In this document: in pieces, positions 24,831 to 33,919 of the stretch
Layout: the number at the start of each line of letters is the position of its first letter
Position numbering within the stretch: the stretch's first letter is position 1
DNA from: a bacterium 1XD21-70
GTDB lineage: Bacteria > Bacillota > Clostridia > Lachnospirales > Lachnospiraceae
NCBI GenBank assembly: GCA_003669055.1
Contig: RAYB01000044.1
Location: 1-33,919 of the forward strand
DNA length: 33,919 nucleotides
Direction: 5' to 3'
Notes under the pieces: generated by a model
Told to the model about the DNA's origin: nothing
The model's input: only the letters and a program-made list of their open reading frames with translations
The model's database searches: none
Position numbers and translations under genes: made by a program

Positions 24831-25952
24831 ATGGGGAAAAGACAGCAGGAGGAGCGGAAAGAGACCAGGAGGGCAAACCAGGCGCGGATTGCGAGGCTGA
24901 TATCGGAAGCAGGAACCATATCCAAAAATGAACTTGCTGCCAGGCTGGGGCTTAGCATGCCAACGGTTTTGCAGCACGTTAAGGTACTGACAGAGGCCGG
25001 ATACATCACGGAGAGCGGCGAATACGGCTCCACAGGGGGCAGAAAGGCGAAGTGCCTGTCCGTGGTGGGGGATATGGGGTTTGCAGTCGGCATGGATATT
25101 ACGGAGAGTTATATTTCGTATGTACTTACAGACATGAGGAGGGAACTGGTGAGAAAGGCCAGGATCCGCGTCCCCTTTGCCAAGAGTTCACTCTACTATG
25201 AAGCGATGGGGAACTGGCTGCAGGTGTTTTTAGAGCAGGCGGGGATAGGCCAGGAGAAGATTTTGGGGGTGGGGATTTCCCTCCCGGGAGTTGTGGATCC
25301 GGATGAAAAGCTATTGCTGCAGTCCCACACGCTCCAGGCAGAAAATATGGGTTTTAAGAGGTTGGAAAGCCTGACCGGCTACCCCTGCGAGGTGGGCAGC
25401 GATGCCGGCGGGGCAGCTTACGCGGAACTGGCCGGGGAAAGCACGGATGCGGTTTACCTGTCCTTGAATGATACGGTGGGAGGAGCCATTTACCTGAACC
25501 AGGAGTTTTATACCGGGGAACAGGGGAAAGGAGCCAGGTTCGGCCATATGCGGATGGAAAAGAACGGGCGCCCTTGTTATTGTGGCAGCCGGGGATGCCT
25601 GGACGCATATTGTTCGGCCAAGGCACTGCGCGGGGAGGATAAGAGCCTGGATGTGTTTTTTGAGAAGGTACAGGCGCGGGAGGCAGGATACCGGAAACGG
25701 TTGGAGGAATATCTGGATACCCTGGCCGCCGCCGCCGTCCAGCTTCATGTCCTCTTTGGCTGTGATGTTGTGCTGGGGGGAGAGGCAGGCCGGTATCTGG
25801 GAGGGTACCGGAGGGAACTGGACCGCCTGGTGGCAGAGTATAGCTATTTGGATCCGGACACTTCATTTGTCCGTATTGGAAAGTGCCAGGCGGAGGCGTC
25901 GGCGTTCGGGATGGCAATCCGGGAGATAGACCGGTTCTTTGAGCGGCTATAA
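24831..25952 (+). CDS. ROK-family (NagC/XylR-like) transcriptional repressor
   Basis: The 373-residue protein has an N-terminal winged helix (TISKNELAARLGLSMPTVLQHVKVLTEAGYI), then the ROK sugar-kinase-like domain with the zinc-binding signature GHMRMEKNGRPCYCGSRGCLDAYC (cysteines in CYCGSRGC) and the conserved VVLGGEAG segment. Such proteins sense a sugar or sugar phosphate. No sugar transport or kinase gene stands next to it, so its targets beyond its own promoter are unknown. AAGGTGATG precedes ATG 24831. Confidence 0.88.
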   Translation: MGKRQQEERKETRRANQARIARLISEAGTISKNELAARLGLSMPTVLQHVKVLTEAGYITESGEYGSTGGRKAKCLSVVGDMGFAVGMDITESYISYVLTDMRRELVRKARIRVPFAKSSLYYEAMGNWLQVFLEQAGIGQEKILGVGISLPGVVDPDEKLLLQSHTLQAENMGFKRLESLTGYPCEVGSDAGGAAYAELAGESTDAVYLSLNDTVGGAIYLNQEFYTGEQGKGARFGHMRMEKNGRPCYCGSRGCLDAYCSAKALRGEDKSLDVFFEKVQAREAGYRKRLEEYLDTLAAAAVQLHVLFGCDVVLGGEAGRYLGGYRRELDRLVAEYSYLDPDTSFVRIGKCQAEASAFGMAIREIDRFFERL

Positions 25953-25972
25953 GGCAGGCGGGAAGCCTTCAA

Positions 25973-26028
25973 CTGTGAAATCTCTGTGAAATGGTAGTAA
26001 AGCGGGTCTTTATCTGTTAAAATACAGA
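25973..26028 (+). promoter_or_regulatory. Repeated boxes before the response regulator
   Basis: CTGTGAAAT is repeated exactly at 25973-25981 and 25984-25992, an 11-nt spacing that puts both on one face of the helix. A third, diverged copy (CTGTTAAAAT, 26014-26023) contains a possible -10 TAAAAT (26018-26023) and lies within a TCTGT/ACAGA inverted repeat (26013-26017 with 26024-26028). In-phase direct repeats are the usual binding sites of OmpR-type regulators, so autoregulation is plausible. The -35 element is poor, which would fit an activated promoter. Confidence 0.5.
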
Positions 26029-26072
26029 AAAGAAGGTTCACAGGAAGATTCGGATAGGAGATGGGAGCATTT

Positions 26073-26750
26073 ATGGAAGCATGCAAGGTTCTGGTAGTTG
26101 ATGATGAGGCGAGGATGCGCAAGCTGGTGCGGGATTTTTTGACCGTGAAAGGTTATCAGGTGCTGGAGGCAGAAGACGGGGAGCAGGCGGTCGAGATGTT
26201 TTTTGGGCAGAAGGATATCGCCCTTTTGATTTTGGACGTGATGATGCCAAAGATGGACGGGTGGGAGGTGTGCAAGTCGATCCGGCAGTACTCCCAGGTG
26301 CCGATTATCATGCTGACGGCACGGGGGGAGGAGCGCGATGAACTGCAGGGGTTTAAGCTGGGCGTGGACGAGTACATTTCCAAACCGTTCAGCCCGAAGA
26401 TCCTGGTTGCCCGGGTGGAGGCAATCCTGCGGAGGAGCCGGGGCAGCGCGGAGGATACCGCCGAGGCGGGGGGGATCCGGATTGACAAGGCAGCCCACCA
26501 GGTGACGATCGACGGGAAGGTGATTGACCTAAGCTATAAGGAATTTGAACTGCTTACGTATTTCATGGAAAACCAGGGGCTGGCTCTCTCACGGGAGAAG
26601 ATCCTTAATAATGTGTGGAATTATGATTATTTCGGAGATGCCAGGACGATTGACACCCATGTGAAAAAGCTGCGGAGCAAGATGGGGGAGAAGGGGGATT
26701 ACATCAAAACCATCTGGGGCATGGGGTACAAATTCGAGGTGAACGAATAA
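26073..26750 (+). CDS. OmpR/PhoB-family response regulator
   Basis: From ATG 26073 the protein has 225 residues. The receiver domain shows the acidic pair in VVDDEARMRK, the phosphorylated Asp in LLILDVMMPKMDG, the Thr in IIMLTARGE and the Lys in YISKPFSP; the C-terminal winged helix ends GMGYKFEVNE. ATG 26061 sits directly on the AGGAG sequence, so 26073 is preferred. In related loci the cognate kinase gene follows at once. Here the kinase starts 4,562 nt later, and the last 24 nt of this gene are repeated just before it (31289-31312), indicating that the operon was split by an insertion that rebuilt this gene's tail. Confidence 0.92.
   Translation: MEACKVLVVDDEARMRKLVRDFLTVKGYQVLEAEDGEQAVEMFFGQKDIALLILDVMMPKMDGWEVCKSIRQYSQVPIIMLTARGEERDELQGFKLGVDEYISKPFSPKILVARVEAILRRSRGSAEDTAEAGGIRIDKAAHQVTIDGKVIDLSYKEFELLTYFMENQGLALSREKILNNVWNYDYFGDARTIDTHVKKLRSKMGEKGDYIKTIWGMGYKFEVNE
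26727..26750 (+). repeat. Left copy of 24-bp direct repeat (putative attL)
   Basis: This stretch encodes the last seven residues and stop of the response regulator (YKFEVNE). It matches 31289-31312 at 20 of 24 positions, including the uninterrupted TACAAATT and GAGGTGA blocks. The differences lie mostly toward the stop codon, as expected if the distal part came from the inserted element. Confidence 0.7.
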
Positions 26751-26910
26751 AGGCGGTATGCGTTAAAGCCAGTATTTATGGGCGTTTCCGGGTTTTGAGG
26801 ATGCGCCGGGTGGGGGAGTTTCTACCAAAATACTACCAAATATATGGTTTTTTGGATTAAATTTTCTGTTATTTTCTATCATTTTTTACGAATTTCATAG
26901 CAGGTTTTTA

Positions 26911-26946
26911 CCGGGGCTGGTTGACATGGATTTCAACCAGCCCCGG
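26911..26946. other. Perfect 14-bp inverted repeat
   Basis: CCGGGGCTGGTTGA (26911-26924) is followed after 8 nt by its exact reverse complement (26933-26946). It is GC-rich in an AT-rich setting and lacks a T run on either side, so it is not a standard terminator. It lies near the left boundary of the inserted segment. Confidence 0.6.
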
Positions 26947-27014
26947 CTTGTCAAAGGGCATGGAAAGGCCTGCCATATCTGCTAAAATCCTTTACATTTT
27001 TTCCGTGAATTAGC

Positions 27015-27657
27015 ATGAATTATATTTTTATTAGCCCCAAATTAGGTGAGGTAATTGCTGAAAGCCGCATAAACACTGGGTTTCTTGACTCCGCATTAGG
27101 AAATTATGATATTTTGTATGAGCGTGTTACATGGATATGGAGGTGGGGAAAGGAGCAAGTGGAAATGCTGATTCATCTATGTACATTGCGGATGGAGAAA
27201 ATTTTTATTTTGGTTTAGGGGATATAAACAATGATGATATTCAGGAACTTTTGCTTTCTTATAGATATGGCGAAGAAGGACCTGTACAGATACATTTTCC
27301 ACCCTCATATGAATGCCTTATGAATGTTTGGGGCTTTGACAGTACAAACAATACATATATGGTTTCGCAAGGTTCTGTATGCATAGATGAACATCATTCT
27401 CTATAGTAAGTTCATTAGAGGGAGAGTGGGATTCTTCGGAGGATGGAAGTCCATATATAGTAACAGAAAATGGAACAACACGGGAAATCAATAAAGAAGA
27501 ATTTTGGACTATAGAAAATGATTGGAGCAACAGACATACAAGAATAAGTGCAAAAAGCGCAGACATTCATTTGGATATTGAGAATATAGAAAACACATTC
27601 CAAGTAAAAATTGACGTACAAAGTTCTGGTGAATGGCTTGTAACAGGTGCTGAATAA
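27015..27657 (+). pseudogene. Frameshifted gene for a secreted-type protein with an acidic DINNDD segment
   Basis: The coding trace moves through all three frames: from 27015 to about 27140 in frame 3 (MNYIFISPKLGEVIAESRIN), then 27131-27406 in frame 2 (FYFGLGDINNDDIQELLLSYRYG), then 27406-27657 in frame 1 (SSLEGEWDSSEDGSPYIVTE to the end GEWLVTGAE). Amino acid composition is coherent in each piece, so at least two frameshifts have broken one gene. GLGDINNDDIQELLL resembles FG-GAP/dockerin-like calcium-binding segments of surface proteins. No signal peptide is left at the 5' end. It is part of the inserted segment and supports its age. Confidence 0.65.
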
Positions 27658-27717
27658 ACCGTACAATAGTTATGATTTCCTGTATATGACAGAAAACACA
27701 GGGAAAATATGTAAAAA

Positions 27718-27744
27718 AGAGCCGCTTGCAAAACAGGCGGCTCT
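27718..27744. other. Hairpin over the antisense RNA promoter
   Basis: AGAGCCGC (27718-27725) pairs with GCGGCTCT (27737-27744), and the loop contains the -35 element of the promoter at 27726-27754. It could end upstream transcription coming from the broken gene, isolating the small RNA unit. Confidence 0.45.
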
Positions 27745-27754
27745 AGTGTATAAT
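27726..27754 (+). promoter_or_regulatory. Promoter of the putative antitoxin RNA
   Basis: TTGCAA (27726-27731), a 17-nt spacer and a perfect TATAAT (27749-27754) direct transcription toward the 3' end of the convergent toxin gene. No protein of any length follows it before the terminator, so the product is probably an RNA. Confidence 0.65.
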
Positions 27755-27760
27755 CTAATC

Positions 27761-27863
27761 AGAAAGGTTTATCGGACACGAGTTCCGATTTGCCCTCAGT
27801 AAAAATTTGCTAATAAGAAATAAGCATCCTCACTTTGGGCGGTAGGGATGCTTATTTCTTTTT
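27761..27863 (+). ncRNA. Putative type I antitoxin RNA
   Basis: About 100 nt would be transcribed from the promoter at 27726-27754 to the terminator at 27815-27860. It begins with a hairpin (ATCGGA 27771-27776 with TCCGAT 27784-27789) and then has GCCCTC at 27792-27797, which can pair with the GAGGGT Shine-Dalgarno region of the toxin mRNA (complement of 27940-27945). The 3' part is directly antisense to the end of the toxin transcript. This layout (convergent RNAs sharing a terminator and a second pairing region at the ribosome binding site) is that of fst/RNAII-type systems. The exact ends are estimates. Confidence 0.55.
27815..27860. terminator. Shared bidirectional terminator of toxin and antitoxin RNAs
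   Basis: A perfect 15-bp inverted repeat (27815-27829 with 27846-27860) covers the toxin's stop codon and last codons. It is followed by TTT on the plus strand, and by an AT-rich stretch with a T run on the minus strand, so it can serve both convergent transcripts. A related hairpin recurs at 28126-28157. Confidence 0.75.
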
Positions 27864-27932
27864 ATGATTGTCTATGTAAGACAGAGCCGCAAAGATAACA
27901 AGCAATAATGTCAAAACTTCCATCACGCTCAT
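27852..27932 (-). CDS. Small holin-like hydrophobic toxin of a type I toxin-antitoxin module
   Basis: This 26-residue gene starts at ATG 27932 on the minus strand, with AGAGGGTGG upstream. The peptide is MSVMEVLTLLLVIFAALSYI followed by DNHKKK: one membrane-spanning segment and a charged, lysine-rich tail, the form of Firmicutes holin-like/Fst/TxpA toxins, which depolarise the cell membrane when overproduced. It has its own promoter (28012-28040), an untranslated leader of about 70 nt, and a convergent antisense RNA gene that shares its terminator. It lies in the inserted segment, where such modules commonly stabilise mobile DNA. Confidence 0.7.
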   Translation of the reverse strand: MSVMEVLTLLLVIFAALSYIDNHKKK

Positions 27933-28011
27933 GGGCACCACCCTCTTTCGTAAGACTAGAGGGCATCTATCAGAAAACCGCATCCTGCTTCCTTTTCAAT
28001 TACACAATCCC

Positions 28012-28040
28012 ACTATAACACGAATACATATATTTCTCAA
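28012..28040 (-). promoter_or_regulatory. Toxin gene promoter
   Basis: On the minus strand TTGAGA (complement of 28035-28040), a 17-nt spacer and TATAGT (complement of 28012-28017) give a start near 28,005, about 70 nt before the toxin ATG. A related but altered copy of this sequence is seen near 29,220. Confidence 0.6.
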
Positions 28041-28101
28041 TTTAAAAATGGAGATACTGGCGTGCCGGTTCATACCGTAAAAAGGGATTTGCTTAAAGCA
28101 T
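28029..28101. repeat. Diverged repeat shared with 29219-29270
   Basis: ATATTTCTCAATT followed by AAAAAT, an A/G-rich stretch, a CGTGC block, TACC and TAAAGCAT occurs here and again, with small insertions and deletions, at 29219-29270. The first copy contains the toxin -35 element. The two copies flank the lipoprotein gene and suggest internal duplication within the inserted segment. Confidence 0.45.
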
Positions 28102-28125
28102 GATAAACGTTTCAGCATGGTAAAA

Positions 28126-28163
28126 AAGCATCCTCACTTTAGGCGGTCGGGATGCTTATTTCT
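28126..28163. terminator. Second copy of the toxin-module terminator, with decayed toxin end
   Basis: AAGCATCC (28126-28133) pairs with GGATGCTT (28150-28157), with the same loop-side sequence as the first copy (CTCACTTT, GGCGGT). On the minus strand it ends in a run of six T. Immediately beyond it, minus-strand codons ending KK-stop recall the toxin's lysine-rich end, but no intact toxin frame remains. This looks like a decayed duplicate of the module. Confidence 0.6.
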
Positions 28164-28372
28164 TTCTCTCTTTTCGGAATTGTGTACCCATTGAAAATCG
28201 GACTATAAATATGCATTTAGATTGTATAATAATGCGTTTTGGTGATTTTAATATTCTATGAATTTTAAATTGCGGGATTATTTGATAAGCCTATCAGCAA
28301 TCAGTCGGCAGGCTTATTTGACTGTCAGACGATGGGGAGTAGTCAGAAACAATTCCGACTATTTACCCTGCA

Positions 28373-28401
28373 TTGTAATATGCAGTAAAATATAGTATGA
28401 T
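28373..28401 (+). promoter_or_regulatory. Lipoprotein gene promoter
   Basis: TTGTAA (28373-28378), a 17-nt spacer and TATGAT (28396-28401) lie 28 nt before the coding start at 28430. Confidence 0.6.
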
Positions 28402-28429
28402 ATAAAATATATTTTTGAGGAGAATAGCC

Positions 28430-29203
28430 ATGAAAAAGAAATTATACCGTATTGTTTGTTTATGCAGTCTTGTTTCAATTGTGTTGTGTGCATGTGGAAA
28501 AAACACAAATTCAGAAGTAAATGTCACGCATATTTCCGATGGTCTTGAATCAGAATATGAGTGGAATTCTCCTGAAATAGATAAATTGCGTGAGAAATAC
28601 CCAGAATACTTTGAGCTTGGAACCTTCAAGGGGCTGGAGGTTTATGCTTGGCAGATGGCAGAGGATGACTATCGTTTTGGGCTGATGCAGGGAACCAACC
28701 GTCAGAAAACTTTGGAAGAGATAATGGCATTAAAAGGTGCTTCACCAGAGGAAATGGCATTGATTCTGTCTGCCTTTGACATAGACGACAGAGATATTTT
28801 TGTGATTCCATGGCAGAATCCCATTTCCAGCTATATGGTCACGGATGATATGGTGAAAGACCCGGAATACATAAGCAATTTACGAAATATGCTGGGACTG
28901 GACTTGGATGAAGAGCAGCTGCTCAAACAGGAAGAAGCTGATGCAATGTATGACAGAATCCCTATGGTAAGAGTGAATGGTAAATTATATTATGATACGG
29001 GGAAAGAAAGCACGATCGACTGGCGTTGTGGAAATATGGATGGAGAAATAACGTCAACTGTTGATGGAACTGAAATACCAACAGAAGATAATCAGTCTAA
29101 TTTTGGAAGTGGATTTGGTTATCAGTATGGAGCAGACGATACAATAGAGATTTATATGAATGAAAAGTGGTTTGTCTTTGAATACAGAGAAGAATCTGAA
29201 TGA
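28430..29203 (+). CDS. Lipoprotein of unknown function
   Basis: From ATG 28430 (GAGGAG at 28417-28422) the protein has 257 residues. It starts with a lipoprotein signal: MKKKLYRIVCLCSLVSIVLC, then the lipobox end CAC with the modified Cys near residue 22. Two parts can be seen: residues about 45-140 (YPEYFELGTFKGLEVYAWQM, GLMQGTNRQKTLEEIMALKG) and about 175-255 (MVRVNGKLYYDTGKEST, GNMDGEITSTVDGTEIP, TIEIYMNEKWFVFEY). Both look like modules I associate with Firmicutes lipoproteins of unknown role; no catalytic motif is evident. Codon use is AT-rich compared with genes outside the inserted segment. Confidence 0.75.
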   Translation: MKKKLYRIVCLCSLVSIVLCACGKNTNSEVNVTHISDGLESEYEWNSPEIDKLREKYPEYFELGTFKGLEVYAWQMAEDDYRFGLMQGTNRQKTLEEIMALKGASPEEMALILSAFDIDDRDIFVIPWQNPISSYMVTDDMVKDPEYISNLRNMLGLDLDEEQLLKQEEADAMYDRIPMVRVNGKLYYDTGKESTIDWRCGNMDGEITSTVDGTEIPTEDNQSNFGSGFGYQYGADDTIEIYMNEKWFVFEYREESE

Positions 29204-29218
29204 GAAAATAAATAATCG

Positions 29219-29270
29219 ATATTTCTCAATTAAAAATAAAGAAGCTAAAACGTGCGGGTACCCTAAAGCA
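29219..29270. repeat. Diverged repeat shared with 28029-28101
   Basis: This is the second copy of the segment described at 28029-28101, shortened and without a usable -10 element on the minus strand. It fills much of the gap between the lipoprotein and TetR genes. Confidence 0.4.
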
Positions 29271-29330
29271 TCAGCCTTTGAAAATATCAGGCCTATGGCA
29301 ATTCACTCTTGTATAATCCTATTTGATGTG

Positions 29331-29370
29331 CTAAAATAAAAATTAATTTTAAAATTTGTTTTTATTTTAG
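29331..29370. promoter_or_regulatory. Palindromic operator candidate before the TetR gene
   Basis: CTAAAATAAAAA (29331-29342) and its exact reverse complement (29359-29370) are separated by 16 nt and end 18 nt before the GTG start. Such a symmetric AT-rich site directly upstream fits an autoregulatory TetR operator. Part of it (29352-29369) recurs inverted at 30080-30097. Confidence 0.5.
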
Positions 29371-29388
29371 GGCGGTGGGGGTGACGTT

Positions 29389-30009
29389 GTGCCAAAGGTG
29401 GCTTATTCTGAGAAAGATAGAGAACGTATCAGGGATGCGCTTGTTTCAGTTGGGCTTGAACTAATGGCAAAGCAGGGAATACAGCATACAACCGTGGAAC
29501 AAATATATAAAAGGGTTGGTATATCACGAACTTTCTTTTATTCTTTTTTTCCAACAAAAGAAGATTTGATTGTTGAAACGCTATACCTGCAACAGCCTAA
29601 AATAATTGGGTATGTGAAAAAGCTAATGGCTGACCCTGCTTTGAGCTGGCGTGACGCTGTAAAACAATTTCTTTGCGCCTGTTGTTATGGAGAGAAAAAT
29701 GGAATTGCTGTTTTAACAATTGAAGAACAGCAACTCATTTTCAAGCGTCTGTCAAAGGAAAGCTATCACGTATTCCGCCAAAAGCAATTTCGTCTTTTTG
29801 GAGAAATTTTAGAAAACTTTGGGATAAAGGCAGACACGGCAAGGATCCATTTATTTACTAATTTAAGCCTGACAGCAATGATTGTACGCAGGGCGATCCC
29901 TGATACGCTTCCCTTGTTTATCCCTGAAGCCGCTGATGAAACGGTTGATTTTCAACTGGATGCGATTGTGGATGCCTTGGAGAAATTGAAAACAAGCCCC
30001 ATGCCATGA
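29389..30009 (+). CDS. TetR-family transcriptional regulator
   Basis: The 206-residue protein begins with the TetR helix-turn-helix: DRERIRDALVSVGLELMAKQ, then HTTVEQIYKRVGISRTFFYSFF and PTKEDLIVETLY. The C-terminal ligand domain (residues 60-200) is not recognisable beyond being helical. The start is GTG 29389, behind a GGTGGGGGTGA sequence. There is no intact transporter or enzyme gene beside it, so its original target was probably lost from the element. An 18-bp inverted repeat flanks the gene (29352-29369 and 30080-30097). Confidence 0.85.
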   Translation: MPKVAYSEKDRERIRDALVSVGLELMAKQGIQHTTVEQIYKRVGISRTFFYSFFPTKEDLIVETLYLQQPKIIGYVKKLMADPALSWRDAVKQFLCACCYGEKNGIAVLTIEEQQLIFKRLSKESYHVFRQKQFRLFGEILENFGIKADTARIHLFTNLSLTAMIVRRAIPDTLPLFIPEAADETVDFQLDAIVDALEKLKTSPMP

Positions 30010-30079
30010 GTGATAGGAATGGGAAAGTCCGTCAGAATATTATGTTTCGCTGTTATATTCAGGCGGATTTCCTTTCAGT

Positions 30080-30097
30080 TAAAATAAAAACAAATTT
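30080..30097. repeat. Right arm of an 18-bp inverted repeat bracketing the TetR gene
   Basis: TAAAATAAAAACAAATTT is the exact reverse complement of 29352-29369. After it comes a TTTAGGAGCGCTGGTGAC stretch similar to the TTTAGGGCGGTGGGGGTGAC leader of the TetR gene, so this may be a second, decayed regulator-binding leader. The interval 30010-30240 holds no gene I can support. Confidence 0.55.
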
Positions 30098-30241
30098 AAA
30101 TTTTTGCCCTTATTTAGGAGCGCTGGTGACTAAAGATGATACAGAGCCGGAAACGTTATACGAGATTGACGGAGGGGCTGTTTCTCTATGCCTTATCCGG
30201 ATTTCATATAAAGACATCTAAACATTTAGGAGGAAAAGACC

Positions 30242-30727
30242 ATGGGATTTTTTGGCAAATTATTTAAGGGACCCGAAATTGACATGGAAAAGAGCAGCGC
30301 AAACGCAAGGAAAATGCGCACTCTATTCAATCAGGTTGTAGAAGATGGGGACAATTATAGGCTGATTTTCGGATATACCGAGGATGTGAGCCGCTTCAAT
30401 TATGGGTTTGTTCACGGGAGCAAAACAAAAATCGGAAATTTAATAGTCGGTTGGAATGAGGACAGCCAGACGATTGTGGTTGTTCCCACAGTTCCCGATC
30501 TTTCCGGCTGTGGTGATCCGACTTACTACCGCCGTCCTGAAATTTTAAAAGCATATCGGAATAAGTACCCGACAGATGCCTTTATCATTTATCCGGACAA
30601 AAAGGGCTATATCGGCATCAATGCTTATGACTGGCTGGAAGATGAAAAACTGTATGTTTATGTGGCGCAGGATGATGAACTGGCGGCTTTTACCGACTTC
30701 TTTATGAACCGTTTTGCAAAAAAGTGA
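30242..30727 (+). CDS. Small soluble protein of unknown function
   Basis: The 161-residue protein starts MGFFGKLFKGPEIDMEKS and has no signal peptide or membrane segment. It is rich in aromatic and acidic residues, with VIVVPTVPDLSGCG-like and DPTYYRRPEILKAYRNKYP segments in the middle. I do not recognise the family. AGGAGG lies upstream of ATG 30242 (AGGAGGAAAAGACC), so it is probably translated. It lies in the inserted segment and is followed by a degraded coding trace. Confidence 0.7.
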   Translation: MGFFGKLFKGPEIDMEKSSANARKMRTLFNQVVEDGDNYRLIFGYTEDVSRFNYGFVHGSKTKIGNLIVGWNEDSQTIVVVPTVPDLSGCGDPTYYRRPEILKAYRNKYPTDAFIIYPDKKGYIGINAYDWLEDEKLYVYVAQDDELAAFTDFFMNRFAKK

Positions 30728-30737
30728 GGGGAAAGAT

Positions 30738-30956
30738 GCCTTTGGGCGCAGCTGGCAAGTGAACAAACCGCTGATGCGATAAAAAAGGCTTTTGAAAGAA
30801 ATTTTATGGGGCAACTGTTTGAGGAAGATGCTGGCATACTTGCGGCGGCTTTGAAAGTAACCATTTCAAAGCCGCCGCCTTCCATATTGTTTCCTACCCT
30901 CCAAAGACGATATGGAGGTACCTACCAGGAAAAGCATTGTTTGTGCGGCAGTATTT
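30738..30956 (+). pseudogene. Coding remnant after the unknown gene
   Basis: An open stretch without start codon reads LWAQLASEQTADAIKKAFER, continues FMGQLFEEDAGILAAALKV and runs to a stop at about 30956. The first part has protein-like composition and an amphipathic helix pattern; the last part overlaps the hairpin at 30842-30878 and is less convincing. It may be the 3' end of a lost gene or of a longer form of the gene before it. Confidence 0.3.
30842..30878 (+). terminator. Perfect 15-bp hairpin, probable terminator
   Basis: Arms 30842-30856 and 30864-30878 pair exactly around a 7-nt loop, followed by CTTCCATATTGTTT. It would end the transcript of the unknown gene at 30,242. Beyond it, 30,900-31,288 shows no supportable gene; a 52-codon frame at 30912-31070 lacks a ribosome binding site. 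Confidence 0.55.
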
Positions 30957-31288
30957 GAGGGTTTATTTGAACAGGCAATGAATTACCCCATAGGATATAA
31001 CATGGAGAATAAAAGCGAGGGCAGGCCGGGAGGTTTAAATAAGGCGTTGTCTAGACGGCAATTTCCTTAAATAAGCATTACGTAATGGATATTTCCTTGC
31101 ACTGCCGCGTTTATGTACATACATATACCAGCGTTAGCATATAGATGCAGAAAAAAGAAGAAATAAGGGAAACCGCGCCGGAAGAAACCTTATGGGAAAT
31201 TATGTAGATTATGTGAAATAGTGAAGAATAGGTGGAAATAATAGAAAATAAGTGATATAAAAGAATAGAAGTAAGAGTGAAAATGAAC

Positions 31289-31312
31289 TACAAATTTGAG
31301 GTGACCGGATAG
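31289..31312 (+). repeat. Right copy of 24-bp direct repeat (putative attR)
   Basis: The sequence reads in frame as YKFEVTG and a TAG stop that directly abuts the kinase ATG at 31313, exactly where a response regulator should end. The codons for E and V (GAGGTGA, 31298-31304) also form the kinase's ribosome binding site. Only this tail, and none of the preceding regulator sequence, is present. Confidence 0.7.
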
Positions 31313-32911
31313 ATGAAAAGCCCTTTGAAGAGTTCCATCCGCCACCGGATCATGCTGATTTTTGCCGGGCTGATGGCGGCAGTGCTGCTTGTGGCCTGGG
31401 CGATCAACAACTGGTGGCTGGAAAAGTATTATATTGATGAGAAGCGCAAGGAGATGGAGGCTGCTTACCTTGACATCGACACCCTTGTGCAGGAAAAAGC
31501 TGGCGATACGTCCAGCATTAGCGAGGTGATTGCAAAGGAACTACAGAATGAGTGGGAGGCAAGGGAAAATGCGGACGAGGATAGCTACGGTGCCAATAAT
31601 GAGGCAAAGGAACGTACCTTGCTGGGATTGATCCGCGATTATGGGGATAAGAATAATATCAATATGGTGCTGATTGACAGCAATACCGGCACGACCGTGC
31701 TGGGAGACGGGAGGGATAGTGACTACCTGGTACAGAAAGTACAAAAATACGTGCTGGGGGTCGGCAGGCGGCATGGGGTTATCCTTAAAAAACATGAGAA
31801 TTATATGATAGAGACCAATTTTGATTTCCGTTCCCATTCGAGTTACATGGAAAGCTGGGGGTTTCTGTCAGACAACCAGACCCTGTTTATCATGTCCATG
31901 CCCTTGGCCAGCATCCGGGAAAGCGTAGCCCTGACGAACCGTTTCACGACATATGTCGGGCTGGTGGCGCTGGTATTCGGCTGTATCCTGATGTATTTTG
32001 TCACCAACCAGGTGACGAAACCTCTGATGCATTTGGCGGCGCTGTCAGAAAGGATGTCGGAACTGGATTTTGACATTAAATATGAAGGGACTTCCCGGGA
32101 TGAGATCGGTGTGCTGGGACGCAGTATGAATACCTTGTCGGACAAGCTTAAGGAAACTATCGGTGCCCTGAGACAGGCGAACTGGCAGCTTCAGCATGAT
32201 ATTGAAGAAAAAATCCAGATCGACGAGATGAGGAAGGAATTTATTGCCAATGTGTCCCATGAACTAAAAACCCCGATTGCGCTGATCCAAGGCTACGCTG
32301 AGGGGCTGGGGGAGGGGATGTGCGAGGATAAAGAGAGCAGGGATTATTACTGCGAGGTGATTATGGATGAGGCCGGGAAGATGAACCAGATGGTAAAGCA
32401 GCTGCTTACATTGAGTGCACTGGAATTTGGCAGCGATACACCGGTGCCGGAACGGTTTGACATCCATGAACTGATCCATGACCTTTTAAATTCTGCTCGG
32501 ATCCTCTTAGAGCAAAAGGAAGCAAAGGTAGCCTGGGAAGCAGGCGGGCCATTGTATGTGATGGCAGATGAGTTTAAGATTGAAGAGGTTGTGACCAATT
32601 TCCTGAACAATGCCATGAACCATCTGTCCGGCGAGAGGATAATCCGTATCCGTACAGAATGCGGGCAGGATACTGTGAAGGTGATGGTCTACAATACCGG
32701 GAAGGCAATCCCCGAGGAGGACATCCCCAATTTGTGGACGAAATTTTATAAGGTAGACAAGGCGCGCACCCGGTCATACGGGGGCAGCGGGATCGGGCTT
32801 TCTATCGTGAAGGCAATCATGGATGCCCACCATCAGAACTGCGGGGTGGAAAATGTAGAAGAGGGCGTGGAGTTCTGGTTTACGGTGGAGAGAGCCAGGG
32901 ATATAGAATAG
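31313..32911 (+). CDS. Sensor histidine kinase, separated partner of the response regulator
   Basis: The 532-residue protein has a first membrane helix (about residues 13-32), an extracytoplasmic sensor domain of about 165 residues, a second helix (about 203-225, VGLVALVFGCILMYFVT), a HAMP linker, the phosphoacceptor helix with FIANVSHELKTPIALIQGYA, and an ATPase domain (NFLNNAMNH for the N box, GSGIGLSIVKAIM for the G box). It is complete. Its natural partner is the regulator at 26,073-26,750, but 4.56 kb of foreign-looking DNA now lies between them, so the kinase may depend on read-through or a new promoter. Confidence 0.93.
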   Translation: MKSPLKSSIRHRIMLIFAGLMAAVLLVAWAINNWWLEKYYIDEKRKEMEAAYLDIDTLVQEKAGDTSSISEVIAKELQNEWEARENADEDSYGANNEAKERTLLGLIRDYGDKNNINMVLIDSNTGTTVLGDGRDSDYLVQKVQKYVLGVGRRHGVILKKHENYMIETNFDFRSHSSYMESWGFLSDNQTLFIMSMPLASIRESVALTNRFTTYVGLVALVFGCILMYFVTNQVTKPLMHLAALSERMSELDFDIKYEGTSRDEIGVLGRSMNTLSDKLKETIGALRQANWQLQHDIEEKIQIDEMRKEFIANVSHELKTPIALIQGYAEGLGEGMCEDKESRDYYCEVIMDEAGKMNQMVKQLLTLSALEFGSDTPVPERFDIHELIHDLLNSARILLEQKEAKVAWEAGGPLYVMADEFKIEEVVTNFLNNAMNHLSGERIIRIRTECGQDTVKVMVYNTGKAIPEEDIPNLWTKFYKVDKARTRSYGGSGIGLSIVKAIMDAHHQNCGVENVEEGVEFWFTVERARDIE

Positions 32912-32946
32912 AAGACAACAATTCCGCTTTGTATTGACGTGAAACG

Positions 32947-32997
32947 AAGGCAGACGATATCATGGATAATCATGGAAAAGTCTGCCTTTTTGTTGTA
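32947..32997 (+). terminator. Terminator after the histidine kinase
   Basis: AAGGCAGAC (32947-32955) pairs with GTCTGCCTT (32980-32988), followed by TTTTGTTGT. It separates the kinase from the recombinase gene. Confidence 0.8.
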
Positions 32998-33078
32998 AAA
33001 AACGGAAAAATACTTATTATGTGTGTTTTAGAGGCCTGGCCATGGGAGAGATGCATGAGCCAGGCCGTTTTCCTTTTT
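32993..33078 (+). promoter_or_regulatory. Recombinase gene promoter with attenuator-like hairpin
   Basis: A possible promoter is TTGTAA (32993-32998), 16 nt, TATTAT (33015-33020). Within the leader GGCCTGGC (33033-33040) pairs with GCCAGGCC (33059-33066), followed by GTTTTCCTTTTTC, which has the form of a terminator placed about 100 nt before the coding start. It would attenuate expression unless relieved. Confidence 0.5.
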
Positions 33079-33173
33079 CAGTAAATATTATCTTTGACAG
33101 ACAGGGGAGGCAGCATATCCCTTGTCCATGGAAGATCCTTGGGCAGGCCGGAAAAGACAAAGGAGGTCCGGGA

Positions 33174-33776
33174 ATGAAGAATTCATATGGTTATGTGCGG
33201 GTCAGCACAAGGGAACAGAATGAGAGCAGGCAGATGCTGGCACTTGGCGAGGCACAGGTACCTGCAAAAAATATTTATATGGACAAGCAGTCTGGCAAAG
33301 ATTTCAGGCGGCCGATGTACCATCGCTTATTAAAAAAACTAAAACCGGATGACCTTTTGTACATCAAGAGCATTGACCGGCTGGGCAGGAATTACCGCGA
33401 GATCCTGGAGCAGTGGCAGCTGCTGACGAAAGAAAAAAAGGTGGATATTATTGTGCTGGACATGCCGCTTTTGGATACGCGCCGGGGAAAAGACCTGATG
33501 GGGACATTTTTGAGCGATATCGTGCTGCAGGTTCTGTCCTTTGCGGCAGAAAATGAACGGGAGAACATCCGGCAGCGCCAGAAGGAAGGCATTGAGGCAG
33601 CAAAGCAGCGGGGCGTGCGTTTCGGCAGGCCCCAGGCACCGCTTCCGGATAACTTCGGGATGGTCAGCAGGCGCTGGTACCAGGGGGAGATATCCGGGCA
33701 GGAAGCTGCCAGGCTGTGCAATATGCCCACAACATCGTTTTACCGAAAGGCAGGGAAAAGGGGGGAAGGCGGGTGA
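33174..33776 (+). CDS. Serine recombinase of the resolvase/invertase type
   Basis: The 200-residue protein has the catalytic domain with YVRVSTREQNESRQ (active-site Ser in VST), the conserved DRLGRNYREI segment, and the long helix LQVLSFAAENERENIRQRQKEGI, then a short C-terminal helix-turn-helix (SGQEAARLCNMPTTSFYRK). This is the small-recombinase plan used in resolution or DNA inversion rather than in large-serine integrases. The start is ATG 33174 with AGGAGG (33161-33166) 7 nt upstream; a longer frame from 33021 lacks a site. No partner transposase is in the window. Confidence 0.9.
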   Translation: MKNSYGYVRVSTREQNESRQMLALGEAQVPAKNIYMDKQSGKDFRRPMYHRLLKKLKPDDLLYIKSIDRLGRNYREILEQWQLLTKEKKVDIIVLDMPLLDTRRGKDLMGTFLSDIVLQVLSFAAENERENIRQRQKEGIEAAKQRGVRFGRPQAPLPDNFGMVSRRWYQGEISGQEAARLCNMPTTSFYRKAGKRGEGG

Positions 33777-33919
33777 TCCCGTTATAAAATTGGGGACAGC
33801 AATTTTAATGTACCGGGATTGCAGCGTGGCCATTTGGCGGAGAGAAAACGGCTGAATGTTTGCAGGATCGGCTTGTTTTGTGAAGATAAAAAGGGATTCC
33901 CAAAATGTGTACTTTTTGG
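33777..33919. other. Window edge, no feature seen
   Basis: The last 143 nt after the recombinase hold no supportable gene, hairpin or promoter. Confidence 0.4.

What the first reader, a model, noticed from the sequence alone, without database searches (positions are those of the whole stretch)
26727..31312. Two-component operon split by an element that rebuilt the regulator's 3' end
The last 24 nt of the response regulator gene (26727-26750) recur at 31289-31312 (20 of 24 identical), directly before the kinase ATG, with 4.5 kb of AT-rich decayed DNA between. The repeat also carries the kinase's ribosome binding site, so insertion there keeps both proteins intact. Integration into the 3' end of a response regulator gene is, to my knowledge, unusual.
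Basis: partly seen in the sequence, partly recalled or inferred. Interest (0 to 1): 0.75.

Follow-up and report, generated by a model that had tools for sequence, protein, structure and literature searches.

The report
Genomic island inside a two-gene sensor operon
Small remnants of mobile DNA in several gut bacteria sit at the same exact spot between a regulator gene and its partner sensor gene, rebuilding the regulator's end and possibly bringing a promoter for the sensor.

Summary
The last 24 nt of the regulator gene (RR, 26727-26750) recur at 31289-31312 (20/24; next best in the window 16/24), just before the kinase (HK) ATG, with 4.5 kb of 39% GC DNA between. Of 23 same-genus genomes with the locus, 20 have RR and HK together; three are occupied, as are three genomes of other genera. 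The inserts share a right end (76 nt, sharply bounded, five of five seen) and, except G010, a recognisable left end. Against G329 and G327 the RR body is only 72-74% identical but its last 24 nt are 24/24, so the RR 3' end came with the element. Occupied sites are scattered among empty ones on a tree, suggesting at least four insertions. I read these as CIME-like remnants (cis-mobilizable elements; four spanned ones 1.7-6.4 kb, G010 larger) that lost their recombinase. No site-specific integrase was found; it is inferred. Apparently new: the target, an OmpR-type regulator whose att core holds the kinase's Shine-Dalgarno, and a right end with a conserved promoter-like sequence facing the kinase. 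Whether that drives the kinase is untested.

The parts
26061..26750 (+). OmpR-family response regulator gene (receiver + winged helix); its last 8-10 codons belong to the element
   Evidence: Pfam Response_reg 2.7e-30 and Trans_reg_C 8e-27; no mismatch to G329 or G327 from 26721 to 26763
26727..26750 (+). left copy of the attachment core (attL): TACAAATTCGAGGTGA plus the rebuilt RR end and stop
   Evidence: 20/24 with 31289-31312; 24/24 with G329 and G327
26751..26852 (+). element left end (attL arm); CTACCAAA twice, 11 nt apart, at 26822-26840
   Evidence: 26751-26790: 38/40 in G329, 37/40 in G327, 31/40 in G154, 26/40 in G014, 15/40 in G010; 26791-26850: 60/60, 60/60, 7/60, 5/60, 0/60; repeat
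27131..27656 (+). truncated, internally deleted lipoprotein-like gene
   Evidence: 95.6% DNA identity over 589 nt to L117 (G327), where a 532-aa ORF is open
27726..27754 (+). promoter-like site, possible antisense RNA opposite the small peptide gene
   Evidence: TTGCAA-17-TATAAT, 10 of 12; such sites are no commoner in the region than in shuffles
27852..27938 (-). 28-aa hydrophobic peptide (MPMSVMEVLTLLLVIFAALSYIDNHKKK), possible type I toxin
   Evidence: Similar peptide in G014, G010 and G329 elements; Pfam Hol_Tox only E 0.59, below cut-off
28430..29203 (+). lipoprotein-like cargo ORF, no family
   Evidence: no Pfam or NCBIfam hit; 3' part 77-79% identical to three mobilizable plasmids
29389..30009 (+). 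TetR-family regulator, cargo
   Evidence: TetR_N 2.7e-10
30242..30727 (+). 161-aa cargo ORF, no family
   Evidence: no hit
31195..31270 (+). conserved element right end (attR arm)
   Evidence: 60-71 of 76 identical in the four other elements whose right end is in hand; 17-19 of 40 in the 40 nt upstream, 8-10 of 18 just downstream
31233..31261 (+). promoter-like TGGAAA-17-TATAAA preceded by TGn, facing the kinase (function inferred)
   Evidence: TGnTATAAA in 5 of 5 elements, TGGAAA at 17 nt in 4 of 5; not listed by the general scan
31289..31312 (+). right copy of the attachment core (attR): displaced original RR 3' end; carries kinase Shine-Dalgarno GAGGTGA 31298-31304
31313..32911 (+). HAMP-HisKA-HATPase sensor kinase, open
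   Evidence: Pfam hits

Best explanation
26727-31304 is an integrated mobile-element remnant, a CIME-like genomic island. An ancestral circular element carried an attP core matching the conserved RR 3' end (GYKFEV codons, about 16-24 nt) and recombined into that 3' end. The element supplied a new RR end and stop (left core) and pushed the original RR end, with the kinase's Shine-Dalgarno, to its right edge (right core), so both proteins stay whole. The element later lost recombinase and transfer genes and now carries cargo (lipoprotein-like, TetR, small hydrophobic peptide). The 76-nt right end faces the kinase and contains a conserved extended -10-like sequence, so in the integrated state the kinase may be transcribed from the element and not from the RR promoter. 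Shown: shared position, shared ends, empty sites, transfer between genera, scattered occupation. Inferred: that a site-specific (most likely tyrosine) recombinase did it, that the remnant no longer moves by itself, and that the right end is a promoter.
For: RR and HK together in 20 of the 23 same-genus genomes with the locus. Same site occupied in G000, G014, G010 (one genus), G329, G327, G154 (three further genera). Identity jump: RR body 74.4% (G329) and 71.6% (G327) against 24/24 in the last 24 nt and 60/60 for 26791-26850 in both; in G327 267/270 further. Right-end module 60-71 of 76 identical with sharp edges. On a tree of 42 RR+HK pairs the five occupied loci are scattered: G010 pairs with empty G008 (support 1.00), G329 falls in a clade (1.00) with three empty loci (empties); G446, a genus-mate of G154, lacks the element. 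Gene 3' end, hairpin-like motif and spaced repeats follow in the same order as at a guaA 3' end in G329 that has a tyrosine-integrase C-terminus.
Against: No site-specific integrase in any element: ORFs of the window, G014, G329, G154 (spanned), the 14.8 kb kinase-side part of G010 and the left part of G327 were listed and a part of them scanned with Pfam (the recombinase-type genes found in G010 are IS-type transposases). No hit to either end in viral contigs and only partial matches in 3 phage and 3 plasmid records. G010's left side is unlike the others beyond the RR stop (15/40, 0/60). The hairpin-like motif shared with the guaA site is widespread in viral contigs, which weakens that comparison. 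The CTACCAAA repeat pattern with up to 3 mismatches had 13 places in nine genomes against 28 for its reversed control.
Confidence: 0.86

Rival explanations
1. The right copy is the stub of a second, decayed regulator gene: RR was duplicated in tandem and the space between filled with other DNA.
For: In G014 the right copy extends to GGCATGGG, about 24 nt of RR 3' end.
Against: The 76 nt upstream of the right copy are a module shared by five elements; tblastn finds a single RR in the occupied loci; the foreign copy is the end of RR itself, not the stub.
Confidence: 0.03
2. One old insertion in a common ancestor, inherited and lost precisely in most lineages, with cargo turnover.
For: Right ends are recognisably the same in all five elements with one; window and G014 are weakly sister (support 0.32).
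Against: Occupied loci are scattered over a tree spanning several genera; window and G327 element DNA is 95.6-97.8% identical over about 1 kb while the RR bodies are 71.6% identical, which needs transfer. Precise loss would itself need site-specific excision.
Confidence: 0.08
3. Insertion by homologous or illegitimate recombination at conserved RR sequence, without a site-specific recombinase.
For: No recombinase gene found; the core is conserved coding sequence.
Against: Same position in six genomes with a conserved non-coding module at the right and, in most, the left.
Confidence: 0.04
4. The small serine resolvase gene just downstream of the kinase (about 33170-33776) made the insertion.
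For: A recombinase gene lies about 260 nt from the kinase stop.
Against: It is a resident gene: present at 77-81% identity beside the empty sites L007, L010-L013 and L015, and not found within 10 kb downstream of the kinase in occupied G014 (L043) or 6 kb in occupied G329 (L052).
Confidence: 0.02

Closest known systems
Cis-mobilizable elements (CIMEs) of streptococcal ICE/IME hotspots
   Same: att sites kept, integration and transfer genes lost, cargo kept (definition in passages of PMC5704250 and PMC7563491); classical CIMEs 1.2-13 kb (PMC7563491); the four spanned here are about 1.7, 2.0, 4.5 and 6.4 kb
   Different: No parent ICE or IME known; target is a response regulator gene inside an RR-HK operon; host group is different; no tandem array seen
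Islands and IMEs at the 3' end of guaA (tyrosine integrases)
   Same: Insertion at a conserved gene 3' end; gene end, hairpin-like motif and spaced repeats in the same order as at the guaA 3' end of G329
   Different: Different target gene; beside guaA of G329 there is an integrase C-terminus, RR elements have none
Integrated elements that put a host gene under an element promoter (recalled category)
   Same: Right end carries a conserved outward promoter-like sequence
   Different: No expression evidence here

Membership tests
CIME (cis-mobilizable element) | flanked by attL and attR with a shared core | tested here: met
   cores 26727/31289 in the window; also G014, G329 and, more diverged, G010; in G154 only 10 nt still match; G327 not testable
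CIME (cis-mobilizable element) | no integration or transfer genes | tested here: met
   none among the ORFs listed for window, G014, G329, G154 or the Pfam scans made of part of them; G010 and G327 incomplete
CIME (cis-mobilizable element) | derived by deletion from an ICE or IME with the same att sites | tested here: inconclusive
   no intact parent found in 24 genus genomes, 397 family genomes and 345 partly overlapping relatives of G154
CIME (cis-mobilizable element) | can be mobilized in cis after accretion | not testable with these tools
   needs mating or excision assays
Tyrosine-integrase genomic island at a gene 3' end | element restores the 3' end of the target gene | tested here: met
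   identity jump in RR codons
Tyrosine-integrase genomic island at a gene 3' end | integrase gene next to one att site | tested here: not met
   none seen in the elements read

The most novel reading that the evidence does not exclude
The insertion is a portable regulatory switch: elements target the one spot in the RR-HK operon where the att core doubles as the kinase's Shine-Dalgarno, and their conserved right end supplies a new promoter, so that integration uncouples kinase from regulator expression and excision would restore the operon. The right end is kept in G154 (60/76, TGnTATAAA and TGGAAA present) although its att core has degenerated, as expected if it is selected for driving the kinase and not for recombination.
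Probability: 0.28. Interest if true: 0.7.

Novelty: new variant of a known kind. Interest (0 to 1): 0.47.

Why it matters
Integration targets named in the papers I saw passages of are tRNA genes and genes of housekeeping proteins such as guaA and ribosomal protein genes. A regulator inside a two-component operon is a different sort of target, because the insertion separates regulator from kinase and may hand kinase transcription to the element. Related gut bacteria with empty and occupied sites form a natural series in which the effect of unlinking a two-component pair can be measured.

Tried and rejected
Serine resolvase next to the kinase as the agent: resident gene. Second regulator gene: not seen. 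Search for the integrase: the arm-repeat pattern in viral contigs (0 hits) and in nine genomes (13 places, 3 of them the known exact copies; reversed control 28 places); no integrase near the other 10 by a motif scan, but that scan misses the integrase of L145 that Pfam finds (8.2e-22), so it is insensitive. Integrase C-terminus from G329's guaA site as a query in viral contigs: 4 loci, two of them (L128, L130) with the hairpin-like motif and a guaA-like end, none with RR. Two further loci in which RR is not followed by HK (L101, L111) hold unrelated DNA.

The idea that the left-end motif AGTATTTATG is an integrase arm site was dropped: near-identical motifs occur in 12 and 70 stretches of viral contigs, some of them near-duplicates; the insensitive motif scan found 0 of 82 within 600 nt of an integrase. 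In the RR elements this stretch does not fold better than shuffles (z -0.44 and -1.01).

Joint-end searches in other samples: genus of G329 (1 genome), genus of G327 (3 genomes), 345 relatives of G154 gave no further occupied site; overlaps the earlier family sample. In one search, 19 further genomes had right-end matches at E 2.2e-6 to 8.0e-4 (short; their loci were not examined one by one). Rfam: no hit at gathering scores for 25900-33919. Literature: no report of this target (listings only; for only 15 of 479 papers were listed); passages of three papers were read. A tRNA 3' end that I thought to see in L145 was not found as a gene.
Full report
Observation. RR (26061-26750) and HK (31313-32911) are a receiver/winged-helix regulator and a HAMP-HisKA-HATPase kinase. 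The RR end 26727-26750 matches 31289-31312 at 20 of 24 positions; the next best 24-mer on either strand of the window matches 16. Between them the GC content is 39.0% against 53.7% upstream. The core common to both copies is TACAAATT(C/T)GAGGTGA; GAGGTGA stands 8 nt before the kinase ATG.

Empty sites. The kinase was searched in 61 genomes, 24 of them (window's own included) of the same genus; 23 of the 24 have an orthologue (the best match in G004 is a distant kinase, E 6.7e-35). In 20 of the 23 the RR end lies at, overlaps, or is within about 35 nt of the aligned kinase start (in L012 the kinase start was judged by eye, because the alignment begins at residue 101). Three are occupied: the window, G014 and G010. 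Of seven loci from other genera, four have RR and HK together; L029, L033 and L034 have longer or unresolved gaps without these ends. The order aspS - ROK gene - RR - HK is kept in occupied G014 and in several empty relatives.

Other occupied sites. G014 (CAMSTY010000007.1): 6.4 kb insert. G010 (QXWR01000033.1, strain 1XD21-29): about 14.8 kb on the kinase side up to the contig end, RR on another contig. G329 (QZDW01000015.1, strain 1XD42-76; another genus): 2.0 kb. G154 (another genus): 1.7 kb. In a sample of 397 family genomes, a left-end match of 89 nt or more was found in 4 (G000, G329, G327, G154); the other 128 of 132 matching genomes match at most about the first 65 nt, which is mainly RR end. 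A strong right end was found in 3 of 397 (G000, G329, G154), with 19 further genomes at E 2.2e-6 to 8.0e-4 that I did not examine.

The 3' end was rebuilt. Window against G327: RR body 71.6% identical, but no mismatch from 26721 to 26763, 24/24 in 26727-26750, 60/60 in 26791-26850, 267/270 in 26851-27120. Against G329: 74.4%, then 24/24, 38/40, 60/60, after which similarity ends (4/270). G154 and G014 keep part of the left end (31/40 and 26/40); G010 does not (15/40). Interior DNA shared with G327 is 95.6-97.8% identical over 589 and 415 nt. So the end of the RR gene travels with the element, and transfer between genera was recent.

Right end. In the four other elements whose right end is in hand, 31195-31270 is 60-71 of 76 identical, while the 40 nt before it and the 18 nt after it show little similarity (17-19 of 40; 8-10 of 18). 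It holds TGnTATAAA in 5 of 5 and TGGAAA 17 nt upstream in 4 of 5 (TAGAAA in G014). This fits an extended -10 promoter pointing at the kinase. The general scan did not list it, because it requires T at the last -10 position, and the sites it did list are no more numerous than in shuffles (13 against 14.6). The module could equally bind recombination proteins. In favour of a promoter, G154 keeps it although its right core has degenerated to 10 matching nt.

Repeated insertion. On a FastTree of 42 RR+HK pairs (G327 lacks a kinase in hand, and G446 was not put in) the five occupied loci are scattered: G010 with empty G008 (1.00); G329 in a clade (1.00) with L049, L050 and L059, which have RR and HK within 12 nt; G154 beside L029 (0.84); window with G014 only weakly (0.32), next to empty L007. 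G446, of G154's genus, has about 80 nt between RR and HK and no element. At least four occupations are the simplest reading; loss of an old insertion is possible but would not explain the transfer.

Contents and kind. No integrase, relaxase or conjugation gene was recognised in the window, G014, G329 or G154 elements (ORF lists; Pfam for part of the ORFs). Cargo: lipoprotein-like genes and a TetR regulator in the window; Uma2, Fic and a BlaR1-type peptidase in G014; DDE-type transposases in G010; an open 532-aa lipoprotein-like gene in G327. Four elements have a small hydrophobic peptide whose resemblance to Hol_Tox toxins is below cut-off (E 0.59), although a comparable peptide by G329's guaA site passes (1.1e-6). 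This fits what is called a CIME: att sites kept, recombination and transfer genes lost (passages of PMC5704250 and PMC7563491); classical ones are 1.2-13 kb (PMC7563491). In those passages the targets are tRNA, ribosomal protein, guaA and a few other genes; 'response regulator' does not occur in either main text. I found no report of this target, which cover only open-licence papers. PMC9960961, the only paper with all five terms, mentions a response regulator gene only in a reference.

Mechanism and limits. Shown: position, ends, empty sites, transfer, scattered occupation. Inferred: a site-specific recombinase, most likely a tyrosine recombinase, because the core is a gene 3' end flanked by spaced repeats (CTACCAAA twice, 11 nt apart) in the same order as at a guaA 3' end with a tyrosine-integrase C-terminus in G329 (Phage_integrase 8.1e-8). 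But the hairpin-like motif shared with that site is widespread in viral contigs, the repeat pattern is not commoner than its reversed control apart from the exact copies, and no integrase was found. Not known: whether any copy still excises, and whether kinase expression changes.

Noticed in passing
L145 3729-3748; L128 10871; L130 10514; A short hairpin-like motif with conserved loop (AGTATTTATGC between complementary CCC/GGG or AGCC/GGCT) occurs in 82 viral-contig stretches (some near-duplicates), by eye often between spaced repeats; in L145 it lies about 150-170 nt from a tyrosine integrase gene. What it does is unknown to me.
   Followed up: partly
L123 (G329 C97), minus strand: guaA 3' end in the L052 host followed by that motif, a Hol_Tox-type peptide and a tyrosine-integrase C-terminus with stops upstream of it.
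   Followed up: partly
window 28952-29198: 3' part of the lipoprotein-like cargo gene matches three mobilizable plasmids (77-79%; a hypothetical gene in two, unannotated in one) and two phage records (69-73%); 28988-29177 also matches the own genome at C91:150573-150762 (82%).
   Followed up: no
L101, L111, L029: Other Lachnospiraceae have unrelated DNA directly after the same regulator (a lipoprotein-like gene; an ArsR-permease pair by eye; about 0.46 kb), so the RR-HK junction may be a more general insertion spot.
   Followed up: partly
window 27711-28062: About 350 nt with a possible type I toxin/antisense arrangement, present in full or partial copies in the elements of the window, G014, G010 and G329 (and its start in G327), not found in G154; a phage record (MT835472) matches 27743-28006 at 75%.
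   Followed up: partly
window 33170-33776: Small serine resolvase gene resident downstream of the kinase in part of the genus; not found beside the kinase in the others read.
   Followed up: yes
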